In this document: positions 28,801 to 57,105 of the stretch, piece after piece | Numbering within the stretch: position 1 is the first letter of the stretch | How the letters are laid out: each line of letters starts with the position of its first letter | Source of the DNA: Schistosoma haematobium | Lineage: Eukaryota > Platyhelminthes > Trematoda > Strigeidida > Schistosomatidae | Assembly: GCF_000699445.3 (NCBI RefSeq) | Contig: NC_067196.1 | Span: 60,517,364-60,581,363 of the forward strand | Reading direction: 5' to 3' | DNA length: 64,000 bases | The notes under the pieces: generated by a model | What the model saw: only the letters and a program-made list of their open reading frames with translations | Database searches by the model: none | Told to the model about the DNA's origin: nothing | Made by a program: the position numbers and the translations under genes

Positions 28801-31800
28801 GTCAATCTAGATTTTTCAATTGCAGTTCTTAATATCTATGGATATTTACGTAATATTTAGATCGTTACTTCCGATTTTGATGTACCTCAATAAACATTTT
28901 TATGAATTGAAATGTTTGTTTCACGTTAAGCTCAGATATCTAACCATATTATTACGGCGATCATGATTAAGCTGTGAATATCATTGAATAGACCAAAATA
29001 AAGCGATAAACAAACTGAATAAATTGAGATACATAAATTGAATTTAACCTGTAGTAACTTTGTATACAGTCCCTAAAATAAAGGAAATGTTCATACGATA
29101 ATTATAATCAATTTATCGAATGATTACTAACCGACTGAGTAAACTTTGATTTACAATCTTGCTGATTTTAATATGATAGTGTTTCGTATTATATCACTTT
29201 TTTTATCTCCCTTTCATATTTAGCTAAAAGCTGCGCATTTTCAATTATTTCCCAATTGGAAATGGTCTTCTAAACAAAGACTTAGGTCAGAAAGTGGAAA
29301 CATTAAAAAACGATTCCTAACTGATTGTAATTCACATCCCAAAACGCATACATCACTGACTGATTCTAGCAATTTATTGGTGAATAAGTCTTTATCAGAT
29401 GAAAATAAACTTATTACACATTCATGTACCAGTAACCAGACCAATGAATCTGACAGTATTTTGGCGAATTCAGCTTTAAACGAGTTATCATTGAATAATG
29501 AATCACCTATAAGTAAGTTTTTAGTTTCTTTCAATAGATTTTATGAATTGTATAGTCTATCATCAAGTTCATGTGATGTTATATAGTTTTGTTTAATCTG
29601 TAGTTCTAATCGAATCCTATCGACCAAGTTACAATGTACCCACCACCCAAAATGACTAAACATTTTCATCACTATTTTCCGATAATTGATGGTTGGAGGT
29701 AGTCTCAGTAGGTTGTCCTAGAAATAAGTTTCGTGCTCATCATCAGCAAGGCATATCTGCAATCTTGAAAAAACTGTTACTCTTCGTGAGGTTCGAATTT
29801 ATGTTAAACTAGTTGTTGAGGATGCTAGATCCTCAGAAATCGATTGGTGAACTTCTTATTTTTGTAATTTAATTTTTAGGATTTGAATTCTTCATTTCCG
29901 CGCCAAAAGTGCCCATTTTTACTTTAAGTTTGTATTGCCCACCTGGAAGGACCCTAAAAGTAATCGGTTCGTTTTCTCTTTTGTGACGCTTTCCAAGGAT
30001 GTATTTTGTATTATTTATATTACACATGAACTGAGTGGTTTTTATTCGTTCTTCTGGATTGCTTGTGGAATTATATATTTTCCCAGGTGAATCTGGTTTT
30101 CTTCCTTTAGTTAACAAAGCTAGGGCGCAGAGGAATAGCTTAGCTTGTCCTGTTGCTGCATTACTGATTTTCCTTTTATTCATCGGTCTAAGGTGGCACC
30201 ATACATCCCTGAATATAACACTAATAGTAGAGATTTTTATAGTATTTTTAATGATTATACTGTATTTGGGATTAATTTGATGTTGTTTTGAAAAGTGGTA
30301 TTTCAAAAAATATATGTGATACTTTTGTAGTTTACATATCACCTGACATTTACATGAATGTTTATACCATTGTTTACACTGAACAAGTACATTGTGATAG
30401 CATCGTAAAGTTTATATAAAAGATTAAGTTGTATTTCATGATATTTTATTTTTGTAAATTTATATAAGTCCAGTGGTAATATCTTCATCAAATAACAATC
30501 CTTTCGAATTGCGTAATACACATATACATAATCAAAACGTCTTAAAACAAACTTGTTCAAAAACAATACATTTATCTGTAGATATTAGTACAATATCTGT
30601 CTACTTAAGTAAGTTGTGCAACTGTTTAAAGGTTGAAAAAAAACAAAGAGTAGATGGTAAACAGTTTCAATTAAAAAATAACGTCTCACATCCATTTTAT
30701 TGGTATACAAAATTTATATAAATTTATAAGAGTAGATCATGAAGACAAAGTTTTTGAAAACGATTATTCTGTCAAGTGTTCTTTGTTGTTTCTCATTCTT
30801 ACAATATATTCTATGAATGCATTAAGACACTTGATAAATATTTACTTTAAAACAGAAATCATTCCCGTCACCGGTAGACAACAGAACACTTGGAATAAAT
30901 TTTTCTTCTGAAACCAAATTACTTCTGTTACCCATAGTGGAGGAGCATAGGCTGCACATCAACATTCTCCATCCAACTTTGTCCTGAGCAATCCTTTCCA
31001 GTTGTTATCCATCCTTTTGATGTCTGTTTCCGATTCCCAACTCAATTTGTTCCTAGGTCTTCCTCTTTTCCGTTTCCCTTTCAGATTAGAAGTTAGTGTT
31101 TGCCTCATGATACAGTTTTGTTATTTTCACAATGTATTTCCTATCCACTCCTAACATCTTTCCCTAATTCCCTCAACTGGTTTGTTATCTCCCAGAGTAG
31201 GCTGTTGCTGATGGTATCCGGTCAACAGAAATTGAGTATCTTACGTAGACAATTGTTTTTAATTACTTGTACTATTTTGAACTTTTTTTAGTGATACAAA
31301 TATGATATACAGAGATTTGATTGGTCCTCCCGGTCTCTCACATTTTTCGGACATTCCATGTACCTATATTAATCAATGGTTATTCTTGTTGTTGGAAAGG
31401 GCATCGGCCTCGTGACTTCCGAAGAATATCGGATTTCACCATAAGGTGTCATGATTGTTCGATGGGAAGATCCCTCAACTGGGAGTGTAGATTTGAAATG
31501 GTTCAAATTGTTTACATATGTTATCATTCTTTTTAGTAATGTCGCTATTTACGGGATGGGGTTAATAATCCCATTCCCAACCCTTTTCCTTTGTGTGGGC
31601 TTGGGACCGGCAGTAGCTCCAGAAACGCTACTGGCGGGGTTCTGCAGCTAGATCACTATATCCCGACCGTAACTTTATGCAAATGCTATTTATCGTCACA
31701 TTGCATGTTTAACTACCTAGATTTATTTCCATTTGTTTCATGAGATTTTATAATATAAGAATTAATTTTCTTTTATTACATTCACAGCTTTATCACAATC

Positions 31801-34800
31801 GAATCTCATAGCTGAAAATATCACTCAACATAACTGTTATGATAATCATAGTTCATTCGAAGTAAAATCCTCTGTTATTGAGAATGATCTGTATGGATTA
31901 AATGGTTTAGACCTATTATTACACGCCGTTCAATATTTGGATAAAGAAAATAACTTATTTAATGATGCTTTAATACAACCTCCACCACTTGTTATTGAGG
32001 ACCTTGATACTGATTCTAAAAACGTTCAAGTCAACATTGACAAATCCAATACATCCTGTAGTGATAATTTTGAAACTATTAATAATTCCAACGAGGAATT
32101 AACAGAGCACAATTTTGAAGGTAATTATTTATTCATTTACATACGAATTACTTTTCATGTTTAAATATGCACTTACTCTTCTCATTGCAAATCGGAATAA
32201 GTAAAAGTTTATAAACTGATTATTTACGACCTATTCACTGGTACTTTGTCTAATTTACCAATTTACGTTTACTTTCTCAAACATATATATGTATATATAC
32301 AACTAAAATAGTCTTTCTAGTTCATAAAAGCCTATCGAAAAGTTGTTTTTTAATTACAAATTGGGTTTATCTGCGGTAATTAGTTCATCATAGAAAAACT
32401 GTTTACCATTTTTACTCCATTAGTTTTACTGGTTTGTAATAAATTCATCTTTCTAAATAGCCGTTTCATAATGACTGAATTCTTGAGAGATACGTGTATT
32501 CCCCCTTACTTACTTACTTACTTACTTACTTACGCCTGTTACTCCTCGTGAAGGAGCATAGGCCGCTCACCAGCATTCTCCATCCAACCCTGTCCTGAGC
32601 AATCCTTTCTAGCTCCGTCCAGTTGTAATTCATCGCTTTCATATCTGCTTATATTATCCGACGCAATGTGTTCTTTGGCCTTCCTCTTTTTCGCTTCCCT
32701 TTGGGATTACAAGTTAGGGCTTGCCTCGTGATGCAGTTCGACGATTTGCGTAATGTATGTCCTATCCATTTCCATCGTCTTTTCCTAATTTCTTCTTCAG
32801 CTGGAAGTTGGTTTGTTCTCTCCCACAGAAGGCTATTGCTGATGTTATCCGGCCAATGGATGTTGAGTATCTTGCGTAGACAGCTATTTATAAATACTTG
32901 TACTTTCTTGATTGTGGTTGTTGTAGTTCTCCAAGTTTCAGCTCCATACAGTAGAACTGCCTTGACGTTCGTATTGAAGATTCTCACTTTGATATAGGTT
33001 GAAAGTTGTTTTGAGTTCCATATGTTCTTCAATTGTAGGAATGCGACCCTTGCTTTGCCGATCCTCACCTTTACGTCTGCATCGGATCCTCCTTGTTCAT
33101 CGATGATGCTTCCTAGGTATGTGAAGGACTCTACATCTTCCAGAGTTTCGCCATCAAGTGTGATTGGATTGCTGTTTTCCGCTTTGAATTTGAGGACTTT
33201 GGTTTTCCCTTTGTGTATGCTGAGGCCTATTGATGCAGAGACTGCTGCTACACTGGCTGTCTTCATCTGCATCTGTTCGTGTGTACGTGATAGGAGGGCT
33301 AGGTCATCTGCGAAGTCCAAATCGTCTAATTGATTCTGAGCTGTCCATTGTATTCCGTGTTTTCCTTCAGATGTCGAGGTCTTCATAATCCAGTCGACCA
33401 CCAGAAGAAAGAGGAAGGGAGAGAGTAGACAGTCTTGTCTGACTTCCGGTCCTTACTTGGAATGCATCTGTCAGCTGTCCTCCATGCACTACTTTGCACT
33501 GTAGTCCGTCGTATGAGTTCCGGATAATATTGACAATCTTCTCAGGAACTCTGTAGTGTCGAAGAAGTTTCCATAATGTCCTCCTATCTACACTGTCAAA
33601 TGCCTTTTCATAATCAATGAAGTTGATGTATAGTGATGAGTTCCACTCAACTGATTGTTCGACGATGATCCGTAGTGTTGCAATTTGGTCCGTGCACGAC
33701 CGATCCTTACGGAATCCAGCTTGTTGATCTCGAAGTTGGGCGTCTACTGCATCCTTCATCCGGTTCAGCAACAATCTGTTGAAGACTTTCCCTGGTATTG
33801 ACGTGTATTCCCCCTGGTTACATTAATGTTAATAAAGGTTGTACGATCATAGAAATCAGTATGATTTCGCTCTAAAATTTCAATTATAACATTCATTGTC
33901 TCTAATCATTTGCTAACACTTCTCAATGAAGAACTCTAGCCTCAGATCAACAATTATATCACTCAAAAACAGAGACAATATCTCACTGAGCTACAATGTA
34001 ACATTGTTTACGGCTGCCATATTTCAAGACACTATTATTGAAAAGAACTGGAATTAGCACAATGACAGTCAAACATGAAATAGTTTATTAATAAGCTACA
34101 TTTTATGAAAAGACAAATACTAGTTTATGTAATTCTGGGTTCTACCTTCCCATAAAAGTATCTAAGCGTTTGGAATTTTAGTTTCAGAAGTAAATTATAG
34201 AAACTTATAGGAGCGATAACCCTTATACCCAGAGCAGTTATTTACGAACTAGAAAAGAAGGCCCAGGACAGAGTGGGTTGGAGAATGCTGGTCTGTGGCC
34301 TATGCTCCATTGAGAGTAACAGGCATAAGTAAGTAAGTTATTTACGAAAAATCTACTTATAACCGATCTCCAGTGGGGTTGTCTTCTGGATTCTGCGACC
34401 ACATCTAACTACATCTTACTCGTCACAAATTCTCTTTATCATTTCTTAAAGTCATTTTCTGATAATCAACCTTTTCACGAGAACTTTAATCTCTCATGAG
34501 TATGTAGCTCGTGTTAGCAGTTCGATCGTATGAAACCTCTTGAAATGTTTTTAACTATTTCCTAAAGCTAACAACATTTACATCCTTATATTGAGTACTA
34601 AACATTTATCATTAGTTGAAACTTTGAAACCCTATGGATTCACATATCCTGTGTCTATTAAATTCTCATACACGACCATAGAATGGTTATTCAGTTGGCC
34701 TTACCTATTTAGTAAGATAACTCCATACTATTCACTCTTCACATACATATAGCTTTAACAACTATTACCTGTGGTCTACAAGTTGTACGTATGATATTCA

Positions 34801-40800: not shown

Positions 40801-43800
40801 TTTTGATTGAGTTGACTGATACTTCTGCATTTTCTTAACACTTAGATTAGTAATCACTTGATCAAATTATTCGTAATGTTTCTAGTCGGTACTTCAGACT
40901 TGTAATTCTTACTTCGTTTCTAAGATATCACCGTTTGATGTTAACAAGATATGCTTTATATTAAAAGTAATTTTATCCTTTTTCATATTCGAAAGCAGCC
41001 GATAAATAACTCATACCATCAACCTGTTTCTTTTAAAGAAGAGAATTGTGTAATCTATAATTGTGAGAATAAATTTCAATCATCTACCAATGAAAATTCT
41101 CAGAATCAACAAACTGTTTCTTCTAAATCAAAACCTCCTCCATTGAAATTACATGATGTATTTAATTCCAGGATCATAAACAAAAATATTGAACAATCTG
41201 ATAGATCGGTTGAAAAAACTCGTGCTCCATTCTCAGCTGATGCAGCTAATCGATGTTTTAAACGGAAATTTGATGAAACTACAGAAAAGTGAGTTGTGAT
41301 AATGTCTTTTTTTCACTAATAACTATTGCATGTGTATGAAGACGGTTCAGCGAATAGACTGTTCCTTTCAATAATCTCATTTATCAAAGCTGTACAACGG
41401 TATTTATTACTAGTCTTTACACATAACAGCCTTCAATGAAAAGAGACGGGTGTCACATAATTCTTTGAAGTTACCAAAAAGTAATCAAATATTAAGATAT
41501 TGAATATGTAATTGTCTTCAATGTAATATTAAATAACATTTTATCAAAGAAATGCTACAGATAATCATACTTTTGATAAACATGAAGAAGATTTAAATGA
41601 AACAAACAGTTGGTGATAACAACTTTTCAAATAAGTAATCAAGCACATCTTTTTTGAATAGAGATCAAGCTTGAAATAGTAAACTATGAAACCTTAAGTC
41701 GTGCACAAATTTATAATCTAAATCCCTTTTGAGTTAGTTCTCTGACTGTATAAATGATACAAAATTATGCAAATAGCGGTCCGTGACTATAGTTCAAGGG
41801 CTGAACTATTGATTGACTTGGATCTCTTTTTAAATACACATACAGGTTAATCCTCGAAAATACGTCTGGAAAGTACATGTTTCATGTAGCCAGTATAATC
41901 TCCTTTACAAGAACAAGAGAACCGATTAAATGTACATATATAATTATTGATTAATCGGCTAGAAACAAATAAACAGATAAAATACTTTACGTTGTTGGAT
42001 TGATCAAAGTTGTTTGTTTGTTTTTATACATTGATTTTCATAATATTGAATTCAAGTGATTTATCAAATATTGTTTACTAATTATAATTTGGATATAAAC
42101 TAAGTGTCTGGTAATCTAATTATGATACCGTAAAACCCATACCAGACCACTTAATCCTTTTAAATAATACAAGCTCAATTAAATTAGGTGTCAATAATTA
42201 TAGTAATTTTATCCAGAAATAATAATGTTCTGTTTGATATTTAGAAGATAAAGAAAAATATATATTTAAGTCTTGAACATTCATGCCTTTAAGTCTTAAC
42301 CAAATGGGCTGGAGAGAGGTTAAATTAAAAGTAACCGAATTATAATCCGGACGATTTGGACTTCGCAGATGACCTAGCCCTCCTATCACGTACACACGAA
42401 CAGATGCAGATGAAGACAGCCAGTGTAGCAGCAGTCTCTGAATCAGTAGGCCTCAGCATACACAAAGGGAAAACCAAAGTCCTCAAATTCAAAGCGGAAA
42501 ACAGCAATCCAATCACACTTGATGGCGAAACTCTGGAAGATGTAGAGTCCTTCACATACCTAGGAAGCATCATCGATGAACAAGGAGGATCCGATGCAGA
42601 CGTAAAGGTGAGGATCGGCAAAGCAAGGGTCGCATTCCTACAATTGAAGAACATATGGAACTCAAAACAACTTTCAACCTATATCAAAGTGAGAATCTTC
42701 AATACGAACGTCAAGGCAGTTCTACTGTATGGAGCTGAAACTTGGAGAACTACAACAACCACAATCAAGAAAGTACAAGTATTTATAAATAGCTGTCTAC
42801 GCAAGATACTCAACATCCATTGGCCGGATAACATCAGCAATAGCCTTCTGTGGGAGAGAACAAACCAACTTCCAGCTGAAGAAGAAATTAGGAAAAGACG
42901 ATGGAAATGGATAGGACATACATTACGCAAATCGTCGAACTGCATCACGAGGCAAGCCCTAACTTGTAATCCCAAAGGGAAGCGAAAAAGAGGAAGGCCA
43001 AAGAACACATTGCGTCGGATAATATAAGCAGATATGAAAGCGATGAATTACAACTGGACGGAGCTAGAAAGGATTGCCCAGGACAGGGTTGGATGGAGAA
43101 TGCTGGTGAGCGGCCTATGCTCCTTCACGAGGAGTAACAGGCGTAAGTAAGTAAGTAAGAATTATAATCCGAGGGTGAAGTTTTATTTTTGACTTCACTG
43201 GGGTCTGTTCACTGTAAGATGTTTCCCTCAGACAACCAGAATCTTCAGTAGGTTAGCTCTAAAAGTAGCAACCCTCTTCTTGCCACGGGTTTCCAACGCC
43301 CACAGTAAGGTCCAACACTCTAAAAACTACTCACAGAAACACCGTATATGTTTGGTCTCAACCAATTATCCCTTGGGTCCTTCAGTGATGCTCCCAAGTA
43401 GTCAATACCATTTATGATCTAATACGTTTTTTGGGTCCTTCTTGAAATATCCCTTCACATCCGGGAATCGCCAACTGCCTTCATACCTCTAAGAACTTCA
43501 AGACTGATTATATCAATCTCTTGTTAACTATAGAGAGCGAGGTAATCGGAAGTTTTGATACTTCACCTAGTTTGAAGTATCCGTCACCTTTCCCTGGTTG
43601 GTTTTTGGGTTAAAAAAATCTCAAGCGTAAGCCACTATTGACGCAAGTAAAATGTGCATTCCCGATTCGAAGAACCAGCTAAGTGCTCAGTAGCTCTCTG
43701 TACATTGTTTCGAAGCTGTGAAATATGACTAGCATCTTCTTTCAAGTCAAATTCTGACCAACATAGGTATTGATCATAAAAAGTAAGGAGTGGTAACTAA

Positions 43801-46800
43801 ACGAAACCACTGAGTCACCAAATGCTGAACTGGACTAGATGAAAGACACAAACTCCCCCTATTTAGTGTCCCCGGTCATTGACTACTATAAATAGTTGGA
43901 GATATTAACTGATAGATCAAAATCAGTTTCAGTAAAGTAATTTCATTTATTTCTTATCTTCCTATAAATCCCGAGTTTTATCTTATTCGATCTTGTTTGT
44001 TCTTTTAGATCCATAGTTAGTTAGTTTATTTTTCCAATTTGTTAATTTCCTCACATGCACTATCCTAATGTAAAATGTACTAACTAGGTTGATACATATT
44101 GGTATCAGGTCATATCACCGTTGATAACTGACTGTCAGTACGTTCAGTTTTGAGACATATCAGCTAATCAATTGTAGCTAATACACTTTTATTTTAAACG
44201 AGAGTTAAATGAAATGTAATCGCCTACAATTAAATTAGTGTGATTACATGTGACCATTTTTATATCGAAATTCTCTTTTTTTGCGTTATTTCCTCGTTAT
44301 AACATCAACTATTGTTTAGATTGACAAACTTTTACTATTATTCACAGACCATCTTTTTTTCTTTAAATTATCATTAGTATTTTAGCTCAAATCAACTTTC
44401 GGCGTCGATTTTCTTATCTACCGAAATTTAACCCTAATACCGTCTCATCTACACAAAACTTGTCATCACCAACATCTATCGATCAATTAACCATACGTTC
44501 TTCAGGGCCTTGTTTTTACTCAGAAACTAGTCAGAGTAAGTTGTTAAAAACAAGTTTCAATCGAATAATAATAGAAGTTTTCTTGTAATTCAGAAAAAAA
44601 AAACAATGTATTTCTATAGTTTCATGTAATCGATCCTTATCATTGTCACGTTCATTTTGTACAGGTTATTGATAACTATCCTAATCTTTAAACTCTTTTA
44701 ATCTTTTGATTATTAAAATTTAATTGCCTAAATCAATAAAAATGTGTGTTGACGAGTCCATTCTGTTTTAAAAATTAAAAAAGCAAACAAATAAACACTA
44801 ATATGATTGATTGATTGGTTGATTGTATACAAAGATTTAATTATAAACATTTGTTTCATAAAATGTTTCCACAATTGATCCAAACAGTTTATCATCTCTA
44901 TATGAGCAGTAACAACAATTGAAATTAACTTATTCGACTTTTAAAGTAATTAGTCCCTTTTGATAAATTTCGATAATGTAATAAATAGACGAAGATTATC
45001 AGAACTGTGTGATATATATGAGCGTAATATATTTCAAACAACCTGATGTATTGCGTTAATATATTACATAGTTCTGATAATCTTCGTCTACTTATTACAT
45101 TATAGAAACTTATTCAACTGTTTACTACATTATTTCTATATGATTTCCTATAATAAAAATTCTCAATATAAAGATTAATGTTTATTGATAGAACTGAAAC
45201 TCATTAGCATTTATTCACAATGACATGTATATTAATGAAAAGTTTTGGAATATCAACATTGTGATCGTTACAAAATGATCATATGAAATGAGATCTAGCA
45301 TCTACATGATAAAATAATGAAATATTGGTGAATTCTAATTTTAAATGAATTAAATTGATCATTTAAGAAGGAAAATAAGATCTCATCCTAAATTTCTTAA
45401 ATCATGATTTTTGTGAACTATTTTTTGTGTTTGTCTTAGAGGTGAACAGTTTTAGAGGGAGTAAAAAGAAGAAAAAACCTGTTAACATCTGAATCATTAT
45501 TTAAGATATGAAATGTTAATATTAAGTAGCGTTCTACTATAAGGCGGAAAAATTGAAATATTTTAATACTTCGTCCTTAGAGAGATTGGAAATGCCAGTC
45601 ACTAGCTTAGTAACCCTATGTTGAAAATCCTCAAGCTTGTCAGGTTTTATACCTGCTAGATCTGATTTTATCCATATCTTAAGATGGAAGGTGAAGAATG
45701 TCAAGGCTAGAAGTCGATTTCTGTATTTAATTCTAGATTGTGTAGTTGTAAATCTGCTGCATTTATGGTGGTTTAGTTATATGTTGAACAAACCAAGAAA
45801 ATATGAAATAGGATATGGCATTAGTTTGAGAAGTGAATGATTGTTTTTTTCCTATCCAAGTACTTAACGTAAGTACAATTTTTCTAGTTTTAGTCCCTAA
45901 AATGTAAGAAAGCAATACTTGGTGACCCTAGATGATATGACTGTAAATGAAGTATAGCGGTCTAGATACATTCACTGAGTGATATCTCTAGATTCTGATC
46001 GTCTTGTAACTTTTCACTTATATGTTTCTTCTTGCCTTTACAAATACTTTATTGAAATTTTACTATTTTTATACAGAAATAAAGCGTGGCAAGTTAAGCG
46101 ACTATACCATTTAAGACGTTCCACACTGTTTAGTCTCGTTTACTCATCCATTTATCTGTCAAATCCATGCTAGTTTTTTTTAGAAGCGAAATCTACAAAT
46201 CAGTAGTTAACTTCCTTTTCTTTGATTATATGCTATATTTAACGTACAATTCTATGCTGTTTGGTTACTGACTAGTAACCAGTGTTACTTTTACGGAGTC
46301 TTTAACTCTGATTTCATTCTAAGGATCAAGTTCCAATGTAGTCACTAGGTTACGTGAATCTACATCACATACGCGAAATGTTATGTTATATGGTTGGCAT
46401 GAATCTGCTCCTTATTAGTTGTATATACACTTTACTGACGATATATTTGTTCAGAACTTGCTACCTGATCTCTTTCAACCATTTAACACTAAACTATAAT
46501 TTCCTGGCAATTCGTTTTTTAAACATTCATATTATTCTATTTTTCAATCTTTTTTTTCTAAATTTATTTGTTTTAGCTGGTTCAGTTACTCCAACACTTA
46601 ATATAGACACTAGTCAACAATTATGTACGCTTACTTCTCCAAGTTCTCATCTTAGTGATTCGGAAAATATTCATCAAAATTTATCACCCAAAAAACTTGT
46701 AAGTAGATTTTGGTTTCTTAATTGTTTTTATTCTATTTTTAAATATTTTATATGTTGTATAATGATAATTGTTTATTGTTAAAAATTGGTAGTAACTATT

Positions 46801-48555: not shown

Positions 48556-50735
48556 TATTCTAATGATAAACGGAATTTAAAAAGAACTATTTATAATCAC
48601 TCTACACATTTTTTGTATCTCCATAATCCTACAGTTGATTAAACTCAAAACCTTCAGATTTTAATAGTAAGCTCCATATTACTGAATCATTAAATTGAAA
48701 TTTAATCATTCACAGATATCATTACCAAGGTTTGACTTGATAATTTCGAATAAACTGAGCATTGAGTAGATTGTTATAAATAAATCAATATATTTGTAAT
48801 ATCCCAATGAGTAGAAAAATTAGATTTTCTAACGTTTCGTGACTCAGTGTAGGCCACTTCTTCAGAGAGGAAATAACCAAATTAAAATTAATCCAAGTTT
48901 AAAGAGTACAACGGAACAACAAGAAGAAGTGGCTTACACTGAGTCACGAAACGTCAGGAAATCTAATTTTTCTACTCATTGGGATATTACAAATTTATTC
49001 AGTCATTCACATTTTCGTAACTACAGTGAGTTTTGATTACAATAGAACTCTTATTTGGTATCATTCAATTTGGTTAACTGTAAAAGTCACAAATATTTAC
49101 TTGAATTAAATAAAAAATCTATTTTTAAAGTTACTCTTCGGTGAGTATATAATTATTACTATGTTTGATTAGGCTCTATGAAAATTCTGCCTTATTTCAG
49201 GAAAAATCTTCATGATTAACTGATGTCAGCTTCGAATTTTTTTCCTCGCACTTAAAATGTTGAAAACGACTATCTCCCTATTCACAATAATACTCAATTA
49301 CTTACGCATGTTACCCTTCATGGAAGAGCATAAACCGCTTATCAGCATTCTCCATCCATCACAATAATAACATTTATCAGTTCTAAAAGTTATACGATAT
49401 TATATCCAACTCTTTATGTATTGAAAATTTTCATTTTTGTTTGTTTTATTTAAACTAAACAGAATATGGATAAATCAAATAAATGTTTAGAAGATAATGT
49501 ATTTTTTGGTGCAAACTTTCCAAATATCAAAGAATTTAAGTGGACTACTGATTCATTGAATTCACCTTTACGTATTTCTTCATATGGTCGTTTATCTAAA
49601 AATCATCCAATTGCTCCAAAAATTATTCATCATCAAACAAGTGAAAATTCATCATTGATAACTCTTTCTCATTTGTCTGAAGCAAATGGAATTAAGTCAA
49701 GATCTGTTTTACATATACGTCGTAAACTAGTTTTACAATTGTTTCAAGAATATGGTTTGTTTCCATCAAGTATGTGAATTGTATTTATGAAACAAGTATA
49801 GTGTGTATGTAATCATAACCATATATATTTATAAACAGAGATGAATGATGGCTAGCAGTGGAATCCAGAACGCGCGTTTCGTCCTATTTGGGACTCACTA
49901 GCTAGATGTATCTGCATCCTAGAGTTGGTGTTCATTCATACATATTTATTGTACATCATAAATTCTTAAGAGAAAGAAAAGTGATAATCTAATGAAAATG
50001 ATTATTTTCATATAATTGTAAAAGTGCTTTTACGTTCGTTGAGCTGGTATTAGCTCTATAATGAACTTTTTTCATAGACGATGGTCAGTTTTAACGACTG
50101 GGACTTCTGTGTTGAAGTTGAATTCCATCACGAACTGATGTCAGCTAGAAACCACTTATAAACAGTTGGTTATTGAGTCTACCAGATTTTCACATTCTGT
50201 AGGCATGTCATAAAATTTAATGGTACTACATCAGAAACATGTAACACTTATTCTTGTTTAACTGATCGTCGACTTAAAATCCTGAGCATTCGGAAACATA
50301 TTTTTTCATGTGTGTTCATATGTTATTGTTTTCTAACTTAACTTCCCACTCCTTTTTCTTGTTTTTATTTAACTTTTACATCCAGTTCCTGTGATTACAC
50401 ATTTTCAACAATGTTATGCTTGTTACTTCCCTAGTCGTCAAGCTTTACAATTGAAAATACGTGAAATTCGTCGACGAATTATGCAAGCCGATTCTCATCT
50501 ATTTCAAAAAACTATCATCAAAGATAATTATGATTATTTAAATAATAAAAAGAATGTTGATAATGATGATAAGATTGAATTAACAAAAATAGAATGTTCA
50601 TTAAGAACTATTTCAAAACATTCTATGCCTATTGTTAAATCAACTAATACCTTACATGAATATGCGAATAGATGTTATAATGATAATAACAATACTAATA
50701 CTAATTCATCTTTATCAAATCCATTAGCAGTTTAA
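4570..50735 (+). CDS. cic: Capicua (CIC) orthologue, HMG-box transcriptional repressor; 18 coding exons
   Basis: Joined exons: 4570-4717, 8839-9416, 15446-15580, 18038-18479, 19250-19612, 22356-22417, 27258-27638, 29224-29512, 30474-30608, 31788-32120, 35962-36091, 38650-38903, 40078-40217, 40996-41288, 44378-44535, 46577-46698, 49463-49769, 50386-50735. They sum to 4620 nt (1539 residues) with no internal stop and matching phases at all 17 junctions. Domains: C-x4-C-x9-C-x2-H motif at about 265-283, HMG box at about 647-717, PPPLK/FD...RF..LP.F block at about 1180-1245, and C1 module at about 1400-1457. In flies and mammals CIC is a nuclear repressor that needs both HMG box and C1 to bind TGAATGAA-like sites, and ERK signalling relieves it. 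That role here is inferred from family membership. Length is between mammalian CIC-S (about 1600) and the much longer CIC-L. Exons 1, 6, 9 and 11 rest on phase and splice sites rather than on conserved motifs. Confidence 0.9.
4718..8838 (+). other. cic intron 1
   Basis: 4.1 kb of AT-rich sequence with GTACGT and TTTTTAG ends. I recognise no element and no frame of note in it. Confidence 0.6.
8839..9416 (+). CDS. cic: cic exon 2, Ser/Thr/Asn-rich N-terminal region
   Basis: The acceptor ATTTTTAG precedes 8839 and the donor GTAAGC follows 9416. The exon encodes residues 50-242 in the only open frame. It is mostly low-complexity Ser/Thr/Asn with a basic patch (HWRRLKKR) near its start, and it ends ...NIQQRFKK. 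That end leads directly into the GDVV... start of exon 3, a continuation that resembles the long isoform of CIC in other animals. Confidence 0.8.
10033..10385 (+). mobile_element. SR2-like RTE 3' terminal fragment with AAATAAAT tail
   Basis: This segment aligns by eye with 11829-12143 (CACCTAG.GGAGT.GGAAAA, TGGCGTATGAA, TGCCTTGTGGAT.AGACCTT.AGGTC, TGTGTGGCGCATATG) and ends in tandem AAATAAAT, as RTE 3' ends do. The last 80 bases are also found inverted at 60239-60310, next to an RT remnant, which ties this 3' end to that RT family. Truncated; no coding capacity. Confidence 0.7.
11605..12145 (+). mobile_element. SR2-like RTE 3' fragment, longer copy
   Basis: This is a longer version of the 3' fragment at 10033-10385, with upstream sequence CGAGGGTGTGGAGAGTTAGC and a final CATAAATAAATAAA tail. 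Its tail abuts the minus-strand EN/RT piece starting at 12146, so the two elements are joined head to tail in opposite orientation, probably by a nested insertion. GC content is higher than in the surrounding intron. Confidence 0.7.
12146..13650 (-). pseudogene. SR2-like RTE retrotransposon, endonuclease and RT N-terminal half
   Basis: On the minus strand the AP-endonuclease start reads [20 protein letters not shown] and [11 protein letters not shown] (13340-13200). A linker follows, then RT fingers: [52 protein letters not shown], up to IIVFLD at about 12170, where the RT palm is cut off. The 5' part (13420-13650) resembles 58440-58560. It has frame breaks and lacks the catalytic YADD segment, so it is a dead copy inside cic intron 2. 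Confidence 0.85.
13930..14340. repeat. Dispersed repeat shared with 43175-43460 and 14960-15050
   Basis: The part around 13930-14140 matches, in inverse orientation, 43195-43350 (CCCTCAGACAACCAG and AAAACTAC.CACA.AAA blocks). The part at 14255-14335 (AGCTCGATTGGTTCATTACG ... CGATCGGG) recurs directly at 14970-15045. This looks like retroelement untranslated or leader sequence; no coding frame is found. Confidence 0.5.
14487..14629. repeat. Foldback element with perfect 34-bp inverted repeats
   Basis: 14487-14520 and 14596-14629 are exact reverse complements (34 of 34, read by eye), around a 75-bp AT-rich spacer. No coding capacity. It could be a MITE-type or Penelope-derived foldback; no target duplication is obvious. 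Confidence 0.85.
14857..15075 (-). repeat. Smα-type unit with decayed hammerhead ribozyme
   Basis: On the minus strand a B-box-like GTTCGAACCCC (about 14950) is followed by CTGATAAG and GGAACGCGGGTCCTGGATTCC, the layout of Smα-family units (pol III box, then hammerhead). The core has G8 changed to A and the GAAA element altered, and stem I starts with a mismatch, so self-cleavage is unlikely. Confidence 0.7.
15446..15580 (+). CDS. cic: cic exon 3, CIC-L type Cys/His motif
   Basis: The exon encodes 45 residues (243-287), phase 0 at both ends, between TTTTAAG and GTAAGA. It includes [12 protein letters not shown] and [10 protein letters not shown]. Three Cys and one His are spaced C-x4-C-x9-C-x2-H (265, 270, 280, 283), which suggests a small metal-binding knuckle. 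I recognise this block as the segment upstream of the HMG box in long-isoform Capicua proteins. It is the second most diagnostic exon after the HMG box. Confidence 0.9.
15581..18037 (+). other. cic intron 3
   Basis: Apart from the TA repeat at its end, the higher-complexity stretch 15695-16090 looks like old repeat sequence, but no partner was found in the window. 16090-17940 is featureless. Confidence 0.5.
17942..17998. repeat. (TA)n microsatellite
   Basis: About 28 uninterrupted TA units, immediately 5' of the exon 4 acceptor region (the exon begins 40 bases later). Confidence 0.97.
18038..18479 (+). CDS. cic: cic exon 4, Ser/Thr-rich linker
   Basis: The acceptor AACTTTAG precedes 18038 and the donor GTAAGT starts at 18480. 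The exon continues SRHLSMK with [16 protein letters not shown]. The AAV.AL.SS..S.SG block resembles the part of CIC-L that follows the Cys/His motif. The rest (residues about 310-434) is Ser/Thr/Pro-rich and probably disordered. Phase 1 at the 3' end. Confidence 0.85.
18480..19249 (+). other. cic intron 4
   Basis: 770 bp, nothing recognised. Confidence 0.6.
19250..19612 (+). CDS. cic: cic exon 5, Ser/Asn-rich linker
   Basis: The acceptor CACTTTTAG precedes 19250 and the donor GTGAGT starts at 19613. The exon encodes residues about 435-555, phase 1 in and phase 1 out. It contains the short block FWDNP and long runs of polar residues. An open frame on the opposite strand overlaps it but has no splice or motif support. 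Confidence 0.8.
20510..21330 (-). pseudogene. Penelope-like element, RT and GIY-YIG remnant
   Basis: Minus strand: [20 protein letters not shown] (YVDD box at 21202-21219), then [18 protein letters not shown] at about 21130-21080, and [18 protein letters not shown] at about 20595-20540. The RT YVDDTF box followed by a GIY-YIG endonuclease motif is the signature of Penelope-like elements. Stops and frameshifts interrupt it. Located in cic intron 5. Confidence 0.88.
21957..22047. repeat. Compound microsatellite (ATT)n-(AGT)n
   Basis: About 17 ATT units run directly into about 12 AGT units in cic intron 5. Confidence 0.95.
22356..22417 (+). CDS. cic: cic exon 6 (short)
   Basis: This 62-nt exon lies between TTGTCTAG and GTAAGT and encodes about 21 residues ([20 protein letters not shown]). 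It converts the phase 1 left by exon 5 into the phase 0 needed by the HMG-box exon. It has no conserved motif, so it rests on splice sites and phase alone. Confidence 0.6.
22418..24879 (+). other. cic intron 6, 5' half
   Basis: Very AT-rich and without recognisable repeats or frames. The second half of the intron (to 27257) carries the Smα, Penelope and gypsy pieces listed separately. Confidence 0.55.
24880..25010 (-). repeat. Smα-type unit, strongly decayed hammerhead
   Basis: The + strand reads GTGGCTAGCAGTGAAATCCA then GACGAGCGTCTTGTCCGATT, parallel to the unit at 49850. On the minus strand the core is TTGACAAG and AAGAC instead of CTGANGAG and GAAAC, so it is inactive by sequence. It directly precedes the Penelope fragment at 25285. 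Confidence 0.65.
25285..25620 (+). pseudogene. Penelope-like element N-terminal fragment
   Basis: The + frame 25297-25527 is lysine-rich and contains [20 protein letters not shown] then LNYN, a pattern found upstream of the RT in Penelope-like proteins (VVNLS...L...E...L..GL.F). The frame stops soon afterwards and no RT follows. The 167-codon minus-strand frame over it is a shadow. Confidence 0.65.
25821..25856. repeat. (TA)n microsatellite
   Basis: About 18 TA units between the Penelope fragment and the gypsy pol fragment in intron 6. Confidence 0.95.
25858..26240 (-). pseudogene. Probable Ty3/gypsy pol fragment (RNase H-integrase linker)
   Basis: The minus frame ending at 25865 reads [20 protein letters not shown] followed by a PSVEELKDH segment. 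The (N/D)PDLQ..(Y/K)(Q/R) pattern is typical of the spacer between RNase H and integrase of Ty3/gypsy pol. Only about 80 codons remain and no catalytic motif is present, so the assignment is moderate. Confidence 0.5.
27258..27638 (+). CDS. cic: cic exon 7, first part of the HMG box
   Basis: This exon encodes residues 577-703. An acidic/His/Asn-rich stretch is followed by the HMG box from residue about 647: [42 protein letters not shown]. The RRPMNAF...IIFS...ILG.WW pattern with a DNR before the second helix is typical of Capicua rather than SOX or TCF. The donor GTAAGC at 27639 splits the box before its third-helix C-terminus. Confidence 0.96.
27639..29223 (+). other. cic intron 7 (splits the HMG box)
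   Basis: 1.6 kb with no recognised element. Confidence 0.6.
29224..29512 (+). CDS. cic: cic exon 8, end of the HMG box and linker
   Basis: The acceptor CATATTTAG precedes 29224. The exon opens in phase 0 with [19 protein letters not shown], matching the conserved ending K.AHF..(H/F)P.WKW of Capicua HMG boxes (residues 704-722). The remainder is a Ser/Asn-rich linker to residue 799. Donor GTAAGT at 29513, phase 1. Confidence 0.93.
29600..29830 (-). repeat. Smα-like unit, hammerhead lacking stems
   Basis: 29607-29640 (CGAATCCTATCGACCAAGTT) and 29690-29755 (GGTTGGAGGTAGTC ... TTTCGTGCTCATCATCAGCA) match 56757-56790 and 56837-56905 in the same order. On the minus strand CTGATGA and GAAAC survive, but stem II is shortened by a deletion and stem III and the cleavage triplet are lost. 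Intron 8. Confidence 0.65.
29869..30342 (-). CDS. Unidentified ORF antisense in cic intron 8
   Basis: A 157-codon open frame on the minus strand. Its C-terminal two thirds are not AT-driven low complexity: [65 protein letters not shown] do not recognise the product. Candidates are an unnamed transposon ORF, a processed pseudogene or a chance frame; open frames this long are uncommon in DNA of this composition. No splice structure was built for it. Confidence 0.3.
   Translation of the reverse strand: MICKLQKYHIYFLKYHFSKQHQINPKYSIIIKNTIKISTISVIFRDVWCHLRPMNKRKISNAATGQAKLFLCALALLTKGRKPDSPGKIYNSTSNPEERIKTTQFMCNINNTKYILGKRHKRENEPITFRVLPGGQYKLKVKMGTFGAEMKNSNPKN
30474..30608 (+). CDS. cic: cic exon 9
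   Basis: This 135-nt exon lies between TAAGTCCAG and GTAAGT, phase 1 on both sides, residues about 800-844. It is polar ([11 protein letters not shown] near its start). It is supported by an open frame, good splice sites and phase only. Confidence 0.6.
30925..31665 (-). mobile_element. Chimeric non-LTR repeat, copy 1 (RTE C-terminus plus unrelated block)
   Basis: On the minus strand the right part ends like an RTE RT C-terminus ([24 protein letters not shown] near 31090-30960). It is fused to a GGATGGGG ... CTTGGGACCGGCAGTAGC block (31555-31620) seen in other repeats. 31030-31600 is nearly identical to 52685-53255, including the same fusion points, so this is a propagated composite. Intron 9. 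Confidence 0.7.
31788..32120 (+). CDS. cic: cic exon 10, Asn/Asp/Ser-rich linker
   Basis: The acceptor ATTCACAG precedes 31788 and the donor GTAATT starts at 32121. It encodes residues about 845-955, phase 1 in and out, with a leucine-rich stretch ([15 protein letters not shown]) and an acidic C-terminal half. No known CIC motif is identified. Confidence 0.75.
32506..33800 (-). pseudogene. RTE-clade retrotransposon (SR3/Perere-3-like), 5'-truncated RT with frameshift
   Basis: Minus strand, two overlapping frames: 33774-33367 ([39 protein letters not shown]) and 33401-32649 ([81 protein letters not shown]). A frameshift near 33390 separates them. The 3' end is a (GTAA)n tandem. The 14-bp ACGTGTATTCCCCC at 32492-32505 and 33801-33814 is an exact target-site duplication. 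Intron 10. Confidence 0.93.
34249..34336 (+). mobile_element. 88-bp ultra-truncated RTE 3' end with target-site duplication
   Basis: The sequence AGGACAGAGTGGGTTGGAGA ... CAGGCATAAGTAAGTAA is the last part of the same RTE family as 32506-33800. GTTATTTACGAA flanks it exactly at 34237-34248 and 34337-34348. It is a minimal target-primed insertion in intron 10. Confidence 0.88.
35190..35590. repeat. LTR-like dispersed repeat, copy 1
   Basis: 35365-35580 resembles 56283-56560 in the same orientation (AGAACAC..TATC, ATGAATCAC, GTTTATATAC.A.CA.ACAGACC, CATC.TA.CATAAAA). It also contains a GC-richer part (CCTGCTTCCCGCCTAGCCCA). It looks like part of a long terminal repeat, but no TG...CA ends or partner was established. 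Confidence 0.4.
35962..36091 (+). CDS. cic: cic exon 11
   Basis: A 130-nt open stretch follows CTTATGAAG and ends at a GTAAGC donor. It encodes residues about 956-998 ([15 protein letters not shown]...). It changes phase 1 to phase 2, which the well-defined exon 12 requires. The acceptor has a modest pyrimidine tract, so the 5' border is the least certain in the model. Confidence 0.6.
36466..36493. repeat. (ATT)n microsatellite
   Basis: About nine ATT units in intron 11. Confidence 0.9.
36770..36939 (-). mobile_element. tRNA-derived SINE
   Basis: The minus strand starts CTGGTCGGCTCAGTGGTCTA with a pol III A box (GGCTCAGTGG, 36924-36933), then a B box GGTTCGAGTTA at 36875-36885 about 40 nt downstream, then about 100 nt of non-tRNA sequence. 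Spacing and order match a tRNA-type internal promoter. No clear A-tail or target duplication is seen, so it is an old copy. Intron 11. Confidence 0.75.
38650..38903 (+). CDS. cic: cic exon 12, Ser/Pro-rich linker
   Basis: The acceptor CATTCTCAG precedes 38650 and the donor GTATGT starts at 38904. It encodes residues 999-1083, including a hydrophobic block ([18 protein letters not shown]) and a serine run near the 3' end. Phase 2 in, phase 1 out. Confidence 0.78.
38904..40995 (+). other. cic introns 12 and 13
   Basis: 38904-40077 and 40218-40995 (with exon 13 between) carry no recognised element. Confidence 0.5.
40078..40217 (+). CDS. cic: cic exon 13
   Basis: A 140-nt exon between CATTTTAG and GTAAGT, phase 1 in and 0 out, residues 1084-1130. 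It is Asn/Gln/Ser-rich with no motif. The open frame and both neighbours' phases fit. Confidence 0.72.
40996..41288 (+). CDS. cic: cic exon 14, PPPLK motif and start of the FD...NF block
   Basis: The acceptor TTCGAAAG precedes 40996 and the donor GTGAGT starts at 41289. It encodes residues 1131-1227. It contains [17 protein letters not shown] and ends ...KRKFDETTE. In vertebrate CIC the PPPLK and FD motifs are adjacent, upstream of the C1 module. Here about 35-40 extra residues separate them. Confidence 0.85.
42350..43158 (+). pseudogene. RTE-clade retrotransposon, 5'-truncated copy with exact target duplication
   Basis: The + frame 42356-43027 encodes the RT C-terminal half ([14 protein letters not shown] ... 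[15 protein letters not shown]), almost identical to the copy at 32506-33800 (for example SESVG versus SASIG). The element begins abruptly at GACGATTTGGAC inside the RT and ends in (GTAA)n. GAATTATAATCCG lies at 42337-42349 and 43159-43171, a 13-bp perfect target-site duplication. Intron 14; orientation opposite to the intron 10 copy. Confidence 0.95.
43175..43470. repeat. Dispersed repeat, inverse copy of 13930-14140
   Basis: The blocks TTTCCCTCAGACAACCAGAA and AAAACTACTCACAGAAAC match the reverse complement of 14110-13940. It lies directly after the target duplication of the RTE copy. No coding frame. Confidence 0.45.
44378..44535 (+). CDS. cic: cic exon 15, conserved RF..LP.F block
   Basis: It opens (after one phase base) [19 protein letters not shown], which aligns column by column with the vertebrate CIC block of form VLSEVDF..RF..LP.F. 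The productive acceptor is the AG at 44376-44377. The stronger-looking TTTTAG eight bases later would put the exon out of frame and run into a stop. Donor GTAAGT at 44536, phase 1. Confidence 0.85.
44973..45103. repeat. Foldback element with 38-bp inverted repeats, Penelope-terminus related
   Basis: 44973-45010 and 45066-45103 are reverse complements with two mismatches, around a 55-bp spacer (GATATATATGAGCGTAATAT ...). The arm plus spacer resembles the inverted ends of the Penelope piece at 46870-46962 and 47600-47702, so it is probably a Penelope-derived foldback. Intron 15. Confidence 0.75.
45104..46576 (+). other. cic intron 15, 3' part
   Basis: No recognised element between the foldback and exon 16. 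Short frames here lack support. Confidence 0.5.
46577..46698 (+). CDS. cic: cic exon 16
   Basis: The acceptor TTGTTTTAG precedes 46577 and the donor GTAAGT starts at 46699; phase 1 in, 0 out. It encodes residues 1281-1321 ([15 protein letters not shown]..., ending NLSPKKL), Ser/Thr-rich, occupying the variable linker between the RF..LP.F block and C1. Confidence 0.75.
46840..47720 (+). mobile_element. Internally deleted Penelope-like element with inverted termini
   Basis: The + frame 47162-47479 reads [40 protein letters not shown] and [14 protein letters not shown]. This is the stretch between RT and GIY-YIG, plus the start of the endonuclease (SNCIY.FTC pattern). The flanks 46870-46962 and 47600-47702 are inverted copies of each other (ATCAGAATT, TATACTTGTTA, ATATGTGAAAAA.AAAA.GTCA blocks). 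RT catalytic and GIY-YIG core residues are missing. Intron 16. Confidence 0.75.
48521..48551. repeat. (TA)n microsatellite
   Basis: About 15 TA units in intron 16. Confidence 0.9.
48793..48993. repeat. Foldback with 71-bp inverted repeats and hammerhead-like arms
   Basis: 48793-48863 and 48923-48993 are near-perfect reverse complements around a 59-bp spacer. Read on the minus strand, the left arm contains CTGAAGA ... GTGGC/GTCAC ... GAAACGTT, the order of a hammerhead core with a very short stem III, as described for Penelope terminal repeats. Read on the + strand, the right arm has GAAACGTC but has lost the CTGA. Intron 16. Confidence 0.7.
49293..49358 (-). mobile_element. 66-bp ultra-truncated RTE 3' end with target-site duplication
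   Basis: The sequence TTACTTACGCATGTTACCCT ... AGCATTCTCCATCCA is the inverse of the RTE 3' end (GGATGGAGAATGCTG ... GTAAGTAA). TCACAATAATA occurs at 49282-49292 and 49359-49369, an 11-bp duplication. It inserted about 100 bp upstream of cic exon 17 in intron 16. Confidence 0.82.
49463..49769 (+). CDS. cic: cic exon 17, first half of the C1 module
   Basis: The acceptor CTAAACAG precedes 49463 and the donor GTATGT starts at 49770. Residues 1322-1423 end with [20 protein letters not shown] followed by FPS. This matches the start of the CIC C1 domain (R...L..RR.LV.QLFQ..G.FPS), which cooperates with the HMG box in DNA binding in studied animals. Confidence 0.93.
49830..49945 (-). repeat. Smα-type unit with nearly intact hammerhead ribozyme
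   Basis: The + strand reads GGCTAGCAGTGGAATCCAGA ... TTTCGTCCTATTTGGGACTC. On the minus strand stem II (GTCC/GGAC), GAAAC, stem III (ACG/CGT) and stem I pairings are all present. Two core defects remain: CTAGTGAG instead of CTGATGAG, and cleavage triplet GUU instead of GUC. Intron 17, only about 450 bp from exon 18. Confidence 0.85.
50386..50735 (+). CDS. cic: cic exon 18, second half of C1, C-terminus and stop
   Basis: The acceptor CATCCAG precedes 50386. It encodes [18 protein letters not shown] then [15 protein letters not shown], the second half of C1 (F...Y...FPS...LQLKIRE.R..IMQA). About 80 polar, Asn-rich residues follow, ending SNPLAV and TAA at 50733-50735. The tail after C1 is not conserved. 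Confidence 0.93.
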
Positions 50736-51954: not shown

Positions 51955-52080
51955 CGAGTTAGTTTTTCACAGGATGGGTTCTCTAACCCCATGCCCAACC
52001 CTCCTCCTTTATCCGGGCTTGAGACCGGCAGTAGCCCCAGAGGGGCTCCATGCGGAGTTAAATAACCAATATACCATTTC
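51955..52080. repeat. Fragment of the GGATGGG...GACCGGCAGTAGCCCC repeat
   Basis: It matches 31555-31640 and 53210-53300 (CCCA..CCCAACCCT, GGGCTTG.GACCGGCAGTAG). This GC-rich block is found in several composites in the window. Confidence 0.6.
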
Positions 52081-52574: not shown

Positions 52575-53320
52575 AACACCTGTTACCCCACGTCGTGAAG
52601 GAGCATAGGCCACCCATCAGCATTCTCCATCCAACTCTGTCCTGAGCAATCCTTTCCAGTTGTTATCCATCCTTTTGATGTCTGTTCCTGACTCCCAACT
52701 CAATGTGTTCCTAGGTCTTCCTCTTTTCCGTTTCCCTTTCAGATTAGAAGTTAGTGTTTGCCTCATGATGCAGTTTTGTTATTTTCACAATGTATTTCCT
52801 ATCCACTCCTAACATCTTTCCCTAATTCCCTCAACTGGTTTGTTATCTCCCAGAGTAGGCTGTTGCTGATGGTATCCGGTCAACAGAAATTGAGTATCTT
52901 ACGTAGACAATTGTTTTTAATTACTTGTACTATTTTGAACTTTTTTTAGTGATACAAATATGATATACAGAGATTTGATTGGTCCTCCCGGTCTCTCACA
53001 TTTTTCGGACATTCCATGTACCTATATTAATCAATGGTTATTCTTGTTGTTGGAAAGGGCATCGGCCTCGTGACTTCCGAAGAATATCGGATTTCACCAT
53101 AAGGTGTCATGATTGTTCGATGGGAAGATCCCTCAACTGGGAGTGTAGATTTGAAATGGTTCAAATTGTTTACATATGTTATCATTCTTTTTAGTAATGT
53201 CGCTATTTACGGGATGGGGTTAATAATCCCATTCCCAACCCTTTTCCTTTGTGTCGGCCTTGGCCCGGCAGTAACCCTAGAAGAGCTACAGTCGGAGTTC
53301 AATTATAGGTCAGCTGGTTG
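52575..53320 (-). mobile_element. Chimeric non-LTR repeat, copy 2
   Basis: Nearly identical to 30925-31665 over at least 570 bp, with the same internal fusions and the same frames (only one residue change in one 63-codon frame). The outer ends diverge (TAGAAGAGCTACAGTCGG versus CAGAAACGCTACTGGCGG). It lies downstream of cic. Confidence 0.72.
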
Positions 53321-56274: not shown

Positions 56275-56570
56275 TCAGTTCAGAACACAATTATCAGTCT
56301 CCATTATACGAATCACACATACTTGGTTTATATACAAGCAGACCGGATCTCATCACATCATAAAAAAAGAAATAATAGTTATACTAAATCATGTTGAAAA
56401 TGTCTGTGAGTATAGAAGACTAACTAAATGACTGGGAAAAAGTCAAGAACAGTGAATTGAATGACAGCAGTTAGTGAGTCAAATGAAAACTTATGGTAAA
56501 AGATATATATATGACTTGGGTATCTAATAAATATACGACAATAATAATTATAACAGTAGTCTATAAACCG
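56275..56570. repeat. LTR-like dispersed repeat, copy 2
   Basis: Second copy of the repeat at 35365-35580, in the same orientation, sitting between the RNase H remnant and the Smα-like tandem. Confidence 0.4.
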
Positions 56571-56691
56571 TTCCTGTAAGTAACCACTCATTTATTTTTC
56601 GTTCGAACATAACAATACGTAGACAAATCTCTTTGATTCACTTCAGGACCACTTTCAAGTGTTTCATGTGGTCTTTCGATGAACGGATGTT

Positions 56692-57105
56692 ATCACAATT
56701 GATTGATCACTGGGTGGTGATCAATCACATGTGTTTCAAGTCCTTATTAGTGCAGATCGAATCCTATCGACCAATTTGCAATGTGGCTACTAGTCTAGGT
56801 GACTCGACATTGCATTCACTATGTTGAGATAAGATGGTGGTTGGAGGTAGTCAACTGGAAACCCTGGACCCGGGTTTCGTGCTTCTTGGCACTCGTCAGC
56901 AAGGTGTACCAGTAATCTCTAGGGGACTGGCGCTTCGTGATAGATTCGATCCCGTGTTATACAGCTTCACAGTCAGAAACGTTGCTGCTGGACTATCCGG
57001 GCCGCGGCCGACCTCCTGTAGGATTGAGATGCAATCACAATTGATCGATCACTGGGTGGTGATCAATGTCATGTGTGTCAAGTCCTTCTTAGTATGGACG
57101 TTAGC
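56692..57105 (-). repeat. Smα-like tandem satellite, 342-bp period
   Basis: ATCACAATTGATTGATCACT at 56692 recurs as ATCACAATTGATCGATCACT at 57034, giving a 342-bp unit, close to the roughly 335-bp Smα satellite of S. mansoni. One full unit and the start of a second are present. The unit contains the hammerhead at 56834-56920 and a B-box-like GGGATCGAATC further 5' on the minus strand. Confidence 0.75.
56834..56920 (-). ncRNA. Hammerhead ribozyme with intact core (type I, Smα-like)
   Basis: Minus strand: CUGACGA core; stem II GUGC/GCAC with loop CAAGAA; GAAA; stem III ACC/GGU with a 2-nt loop; cleavage triplet GUC; stem I ACCUUG paired with CAGGGU (six pairs including one G-U). Every conserved core position is present. 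The predicted cleavage is between 56867 and 56866. Tertiary loop contacts of stem I with loop II were not assessed. Confidence 0.82.

What the first reader, a model, noticed from the sequence alone, without database searches (positions are those of the whole stretch)
56834..56920. Hammerhead ribozyme with intact core and all three stems in an Smα-like satellite unit
Every conserved core base is present, stem I has six pairs, stems II and III close, and the triplet is GUC. Its stem sequences differ from the common Smα ribozyme (GUGC/GCAC instead of GUCC/GGAC, and CUGACGA instead of CUGAUGA), yet pairing is preserved by compensatory changes. This suggests a distinct subfamily kept functional by selection.
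Basis: partly seen in the sequence, partly recalled or inferred. Interest (0 to 1): 0.75.

Follow-up and report, generated by a model that had tools for sequence, protein, structure and literature searches.

The report
Intact hammerhead ribozyme in schistosome repeat
A short self-cutting RNA motif of a well-known type sits in an old copy of a repetitive element of a schistosome-like worm genome; it is real and might still cut, but it belongs to a kind of repeat already known in these worms.

Summary
Minus strand 56905-56861 matches Rfam's type I hammerhead above threshold (40.9 against 34 bits, E 5.5e-7), with every core base and a GUC cut at 56867/56866. Corrections: stem III (ACCCGGGU) is a palindrome giving two pairs within one molecule but eight between two; position 7 is unpaired, so its C is not compensatory; stem I continues in an outer 5-bp helix. 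The ribozyme sits in a SINE-like element: A/B-box-like sites, ribozyme, tail, and 66-nt direct repeats spaced 342. The window holds a broken sibling (29590-29830) and three Smα-type copies with broken cores. Against these three, four pairs differ on both sides with pairing kept, so the subfamily's stems evolved under constraint. That does not show selection on this copy: from the repeats' 7 of 66 differences, a 13-base core survives neutrally about half the time, and a competing hairpin may block folding. Published work already reports four hammerhead families in Schistosoma mansoni (PMC8490949); I could not compare sequences with them, and the own-genome search did not complete. Verdict: a real, fairly ordinary member of a known kind.

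The parts
56861..56905 (-). type I hammerhead ribozyme: inner stem I, core, stem II, palindromic stem III; cut between 56867 and 56866
   Evidence: RF00163, 40.9 bits, E 5.5e-7; own 4-copy model 62.6 bits, built in part from this copy
56848..56914 (-). ribozyme with outer stem I helix (ACUGG/CCAGU) and internal loop UAC/UU
   Evidence: HH9 alignment; fold and energy
56942..56952 (-). Pol III B-box-like site GGATCGAATCT (2 mismatches to the recalled consensus)
56985..56995 (-). Pol III A-box-like site TAGTCCAGCAG (recalled consensus)
   Evidence: A then B at the allowed spacing in 36 of 20000 mononucleotide shuffles of the head
57028..57093 (-). upstream 66-nt direct repeat
   Evidence: 89% identical to 56686-56751, spacing 342
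56686..56751 (-). downstream 66-nt direct repeat, with the hairpin TTGATCAC-CACCCA-GTGATCAA
56686..57093 (-). whole element, 408 bp = 1.19 units of 342 bp
29590..29830 (-). broken sibling of the same subfamily: head, ribozyme with a 7-nt gap at the 5' side of stem II and a mostly unpaired stem III, tail
   Evidence: blastn 75% over 105 bp at 29601-29704; alignments
46300..46396 (-). possible tail fragment of the same subfamily
   Evidence: nhmmer with a 2-copy profile, E 1.2e-4
49863..49907 (-). Sm-alpha-type hammerhead with broken core (CUAGUGA)
   Evidence: RF00163, 50.6 bits
24906..24950 (-). Sm-alpha-type hammerhead with broken core
   Evidence: RF00163, 34.4 bits
14875..14919 (-). Sm-alpha-type hammerhead with broken core
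   Evidence: RF00163, 24.3 bits, below gathering

Best explanation
It is one inserted copy of a SINE-like, non-autonomous retroelement carrying a type I hammerhead ribozyme, a sister subfamily of Sm-alpha. Proposed working: Pol III starts at the internal A/B boxes on the minus strand and reads through the element, since the first T4 run lies beyond it; in multi-unit transcripts the hammerheads cut once per unit and release RNAs of about 342 nt, which can be ligated into circles and copied by a reverse transcriptase supplied by another element (a retrozyme-like cycle). The 1.19-unit structure with 66-nt direct repeats is what copying a little more than once round such a circle would leave. Because stem III is palindromic and too short in one molecule, cutting is probably helped by pairing of two ribozymes. 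Shown: motif, core, element layout, sibling, covariation. Inferred: transcription, cutting, circle, retrotransposition, dimer use.
For: Rfam matches; A-box-like then B-box-like site 32 nt apart upstream; first T4 on the minus strand downstream of the B box at 56501; direct repeats spaced 342; sibling with the same order of ribozyme and tail; 6 pairs with a change on both sides, 0 of 500 shuffles as high, four of the six specific to this copy; two-strand minimum-energy structure at 45 and 67 nt is exactly the double hammerhead; the 342-nt unit folded as a circle is more stable than shuffles (z -2.1, 3 of 100 as low). Published: hammerhead elements in introns of SmPoMuc genes are said to hold Pol III boxes A and B (PMC2576457, passages); most classical type I hammerheads of animals are said to lie in retrozymes giving RNAs of about 170-400 nt, and platyhelminths are listed among the bearers of such repeats (PMC7229834, abstract and one section).
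Against: A competing hairpin GAAACCC/GGGUUUC ties up the core strand in the secondary-structure model (probability of its fourth pair 0.63 at 67 nt, 0.78 at 87, 0.98 at 161, 0.99 at 276); it is also in the fold of the circle. The two-strand optimum at 51 and 87 nt is not the hammerhead. The 79-nt single-strand fold is no more stable than shuffles (z -0.37). This copy has one ribozyme, so it cannot release a unit by itself. No exact short repeat of 5 nt or more was found between the 30-31 bases outside the two direct repeats. The sibling lacks the direct repeat: its hairpin is found, with up to 3 mismatches, only at the two places of this element. The sibling and two of the three Sm-alpha-type copies show no box within the limits used, the third a B box only; one more A+B pair occurs elsewhere in the window at 36926/36885.
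Confidence: 0.7

Rival explanations
1. The copy is a dead or dying fossil: the core is intact only because too little time has passed, and the competing hairpin makes it inactive in its natural transcript. (This concerns the present copy and does not exclude the best explanation, which concerns the element's family.)
For: 1 of the 5 hammerhead copies seen in the window has an intact core with stems I and II; the direct repeats differ at 7 of 66 sites, giving a neutral chance of 0.48 that 13 core bases are untouched; competing hairpin.
Against: The same energy model also misses the hammerhead fold for the Rfam consensus, so the prediction of inactivity is weak. The neutral estimate assumes that the repeats were identical at insertion; for 41 core and paired bases the chance falls to 0.10.
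Confidence: 0.45
2. The copy has been domesticated and is kept by selection for a local role, for example cutting an intergenic or antisense transcript near the capicua-like gene.
For: Intact core and outer stem I; HH9, the better-scoring model here with permissive filters, is as recalled a conserved intronic ribozyme of amniotes; a role of intronic hammerheads in SmPoMuc transcripts has been hypothesised (PMC2576457, passages).
Against: No orthologous copy could be compared (genome search did not complete); it lies about 6 kb past the last capicua-like reading frame found and on the other strand; neutral survival suffices.
Confidence: 0.04
3. The 66-nt direct repeats are a separate dispersed repeat or a long duplication made at insertion, and the element proper is the 276 bp between them.
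For: The sibling's similarity stops near the start of the downstream repeat and it lacks the repeat; one published W25.2 copy is said to be flanked by duplicated sequence that differs from W25.2 (PMC8490949, passages).
Against: 66 nt is very long for a target-site duplication (established knowledge); the repeat's hairpin is found nowhere else in the window; a 342-bp unit is near the 332-335 bp reported for Sm-alpha/W36.2.
Confidence: 0.35

Closest known systems
Sm-alpha (W36.2) SINE-like element of Schistosoma mansoni
   Same: type I hammerhead with a palindromic or very short stem III, unit of 332-335 bp against 342 bp here; the UAC before stem I is shared with the window's copies at 49863 and 24906
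   Different: no blastn match of the element to the three Sm-alpha-type copies in the window at E 1e-3; different stem sequences and outer stem I
W25.2, W26.2 and W27.2 hammerhead-bearing W-elements (Stitz et al. 2021, PMC8490949; two sections and passages seen)
   Same: hammerheads only weakly similar to Sm-alpha, extremely short stem III, 25,162 to 55,303 autosomal copies or parts each; three of five tested candidates, drawn from W25.2 and W36.2, cut in vitro
Non-LTR retrozymes of metazoans (Cervera and de la Pena 2020, PMC7229834; abstract, passages and one section seen)
   Same: repeat of 170-400 bp size with one type I hammerhead; unit predicted to be self-paired as a circle
   Different: one unit plus 66 nt here instead of a tandem array; no RNA evidence
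Rfam Hammerhead_HH9 (RF02275)
   Same: two-part stem I and a CAANNA loop II; best-scoring clan model here with permissive filters
   Different: 42.5 bits, below its gathering score of 52; HH9's stem III is 3 bp with a 5-nt loop

Membership tests
Hammerhead ribozyme, type I | covariance score above gathering threshold | tested here: met
   40.9 against 34 bits
Hammerhead ribozyme, type I | conserved core CUGANGA ... GAA ... UH | tested here: met
   sequence
Hammerhead ribozyme, type I | three helices, stem I open-ended | tested here: inconclusive
   stems I and II form in the 45-nt fold (0.88, 0.98); stem III 0.0 in one molecule, 8 bp between two at 45 and 67 nt but not at 51 and 87 nt
Hammerhead ribozyme, type I | self-cleavage | not testable with these tools
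   needs an in vitro transcript
Sm-alpha element | sequence similarity over the unit | tested here: not met
   no blastn match to the three Sm-alpha-type copies; 0.45-0.52 identity in a forced alignment. A 2-copy profile finds 49924-49846 at E 8e-6, 24990-24873 at 0.022 and 14960-14872 at 1.9, so related, not the same
Sm-alpha element | Pol III boxes A and B upstream of the ribozyme | tested here: met
   consensus recalled; B box has 2 mismatches; the window's own Sm-alpha-type copies do not show both boxes under the same limits
W25.2 / W26.2 / W27.2 | sequence identity to the published monomers | not testable with these tools
Non-LTR retrozyme | tandem units of 170-400 bp with a type I hammerhead | tested here: inconclusive
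   342-bp unit, but only 1.19 units
Non-LTR retrozyme | circular RNA of the unit | not testable with these tools
   no RNA data
Hammerhead_HH9 | score above gathering threshold | tested here: not met
   42.5 against 52

The most novel reading that the evidence does not exclude
An undescribed hammerhead retroelement subfamily, distinct from Sm-alpha and from W25.2-W27.2, whose ribozyme is switched by structure: off in the nascent single transcript through the GAAACCC/GGGUUUC hairpin, on when two ribozymes pair through the palindromic stem III. ('Undescribed' rests only on paper searches, which cannot see figure alignments or supplements.)
Probability: 0.1. Interest if true: 0.45.

Novelty: new member of a known kind. 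Interest (0 to 1): 0.22.

Why it matters
It is a modest data point: it shows hammerhead elements diverging into subfamilies while base pairing is kept, and it offers a natural variant with a palindromic stem III for testing whether these animal hammerheads cut as dimers. About 38,500 hammerhead candidates were reported in S. mansoni (PMC2770079, passages), so one more copy is not in itself surprising.

Tried and rejected
Own-genome search for RF00163 copies was asked eight times and never answered, so copy number and orthologues are unknown. Pattern scans for the core with either stem II: 0 stretches in viral contigs, 1 in genome contigs, a CPR2 bacterium with no Rfam match up to E 0.1 in the 8000 bases held. 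Text searches for a direct-repeat string (0 papers) and for five hammerhead strings (1 paper, by its title unrelated). PMC108972 (the original Smα paper) and PMC3334697 are not held. tRNA scan of the window: 0 genes, so no tRNA-like head was confirmed. Rejected: chance motif (E 5.5e-7); a compensatory reading of position 7; selection on this copy as an established fact. My hand-written dimer structure could not be scored (value 100000); the free two-strand fold gives the same pairs for this copy, but not for the Rfam consensus, whose two-strand optimum is another structure. In one search the printed first T4 position was an empty search result; one search gives the positions. The plus strand of the ribozyme region and the Smα-type copy at 49863 were folded too; neither bears on the verdict (z -0.32; z -2.58, not a hammerhead fold).

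Full report
Observation. The minus strand 56905-56861 is a type I hammerhead. Rfam's RF00163 gives 40.9 bits (gathering 34), E 5.5e-7, one of three matches above threshold in the 64 kb window. With permissive filters the HH9 model scores 42.5 bits there, below its own threshold of 52.

Anatomy of the ribozyme. Inner stem I ACCUUG/CAGGGU (six pairs, one U-G); internal loop UAC/UU; outer stem I ACUGG/CCAGU; stem II GUGC-CAAGAA-GCAC; stem III ACCCGGGU. The last is a palindrome and has no room for a loop if all four pairs form, so one molecule can hold only two pairs; its modelled probability is 0.0 at all five lengths tried. Two molecules can form eight. In a two-strand fold of the 45-nt and of the 67-nt RNA the optimum is exactly the double hammerhead (-33.5 against twice -11.3; -47.9 against twice -18.5 kcal/mol), but not at 51 or 87 nt, and not for the Rfam consensus. 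A short or palindromic stem III is a known habit of this class: a supplementary legend in PMC3088659 (passages) and the remark in PMC8490949 that all its candidates have an extremely short stem III (passages).

Against function. The hairpin GAAACCC/GGGUUUC ties up the core strand. The probability of its fourth pair is 0.63 in 67 nt, 0.78 in 87, 0.98 in 161 and 0.99 in 276 nt, and it is in the fold of the 342-nt circle. The 79-nt minimum-energy fold contains it and is no more stable than shuffles (z -0.37, 65 of 200 as stable). Such models ignore tertiary contacts between loops I and II (established knowledge) and also miss the hammerhead for the Rfam consensus, so this is a caution, not a refutation.

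Element. On the minus strand the order is: direct repeat 57093-57028, A-box-like site 56995-56985, B-box-like site 56952-56942, ribozyme 56905-56861, tail, direct repeat 56751-56686. The repeats are 66 nt, 89% identical, spaced 342. A then B boxes at the allowed spacing arise in 36 of 20000 mononucleotide shuffles of the head; one more such pair exists in the window (36926/36885). The first T4 run, a Pol III stop, on the minus strand downstream of the B box is at 56501. The 342-nt unit as a circle folds to -93.3 kcal/mol against a mean of -81.1 (sd 5.8) for 100 dinucleotide shuffles, 3 as low. No exact repeat of 5 nt or more is shared by the 30-31 bases outside the two direct repeats.

Subfamily. 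blastn at E 1e-3 finds one other copy of the element in the window, 29601-29704, 75% identical over 105 bp. A longer alignment (29590-29830) gives 0.644 identity over 236 sites, against 0.45-0.52 between the finding's element and the three Smα-type copies. The sibling keeps CCUUG of stem I, CUGAUGA, GCAC of stem II and GAAAC, but has a 7-nt gap at the 5' side of stem II and its loop, UUC in place of GUC, and a stem III that mostly does not pair. A tail fragment may lie at 46396-46300 (E 1.2e-4). Smα-type copies are at 49863, 24906 and 14875, all with broken cores. So 1 of the 5 hammerhead copies seen in the window is intact. An unfiltered search of both strands with a model of the four alignable copies gave these four and 9 further matches at E 2.6 or worse, which I take as chance.

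Selection. On the four alignable copies 92.9% of cells pair and 6 pairs show a change on both sides; 0 of 500 shuffles reach either value, 12 of 500 reach the 7 further pair types, and slid structures give at most 42.3% and 1. Four of the six double changes belong to the finding's copy (columns 2/44, 5/41, 16/25, 33/36). The structure was taken from the Rfam family, and with four related rows the shuffles are not a probability. This speaks for constraint along the subfamily's lineage. It does not speak for this copy: with 7 of 66 differences between the direct repeats (0.057 substitutions per site per copy, if they were identical at insertion) 13 core bases stay untouched with probability 0.48, and 41 core and paired bases with 0.10.

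What is known. About 38,500 hammerhead candidates were reported in S. mansoni and about 5,000 in S. japonicum (PMC2770079, passages). PMC8490949 (two sections and passages) describes four hammerhead-bearing families: W36.2 (= Smα, 332-335 bp), W25.2 (415-428), W26.2 (399-402) and W27.2 (403), with weak similarity among them; three of the four were found in all schistosomes examined, while W26.2 had only a small part without the ribozyme in S. japonicum; three of five candidates, variants of W25.2 and W36.2, cut in vitro as predicted. The finding's element is quite possibly one of these families: its total of 408 bp is near their monomer lengths, but I had no sequence to compare. Intronic hammerheads with Pol III boxes are also reported in SmPoMuc genes (PMC2576457, passages). 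The species of the window was not tested; a schistosome is inferred from the Smα-type ribozymes and the 34% GC.

Surroundings. The plus strand carries a capicua-like gene: an HMG box at 27210-27710 (best solved relative: capicua homolog, E 2.8e-21) and two exon-like frames resembling the capicua C1 domain, at about 49.7 and 50.4-50.7 kb (C1 motif recalled). The Smα-type copy at 49863 lies between those two frames. The finding's element lies about 6 kb beyond the last of them, on the opposite strand.

Verdict. A real hammerhead with an intact core in a diverged SINE-like element; ordinary for schistosomes, with a small open question about dimer use and the competing hairpin.

Noticed in passing
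51995-52064 (-), 31577-31646 (-), 53235-53304 (-): Three sequences like the type-P1 twister ribozyme (59.6, 37.5 and 21.9 bits, all below the gathering score of 67.2); the last two lie in stretches 95% identical over 243 bp.
   Followed up: partly
whole window: The 5 hammerhead copies and the 3 twister-like matches seen all lie on the minus strand, opposite to the capicua-like gene, while frames with a reverse transcriptase match lie on both strands (12012-12866 -, 32649-33452 -, 42335-43027 +, the last below cut-off). Too few to test, and the gene's start is not known; a genome-wide test of whether ribozyme elements avoid the sense strand of introns would be easy.
   Followed up: no
49718-50732 (+): Capicua C1-like domain apparently split by an intron that holds a Sm-alpha-type hammerhead copy in antisense.
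   Followed up: partly
44990-45086: Long inverted repeat of 97 nt (weak MIR1511 match on both strands, far below gathering), perhaps a MITE.
   Followed up: no
14256-14324 and 14969-15037: 69-bp direct repeats, 87% identical, the second beside the Sm-alpha-type copy at 14875; between them a 30-bp perfect inverted repeat (14487-14516 / 14600-14629).
   Followed up: no
L001 3766-3791 (-): Exact match to the hammerhead core and stem II pattern in a candidate division CPR2 bacterium, just before a terminator-like hairpin by eye; no Rfam match up to E 0.1.
   Followed up: partly
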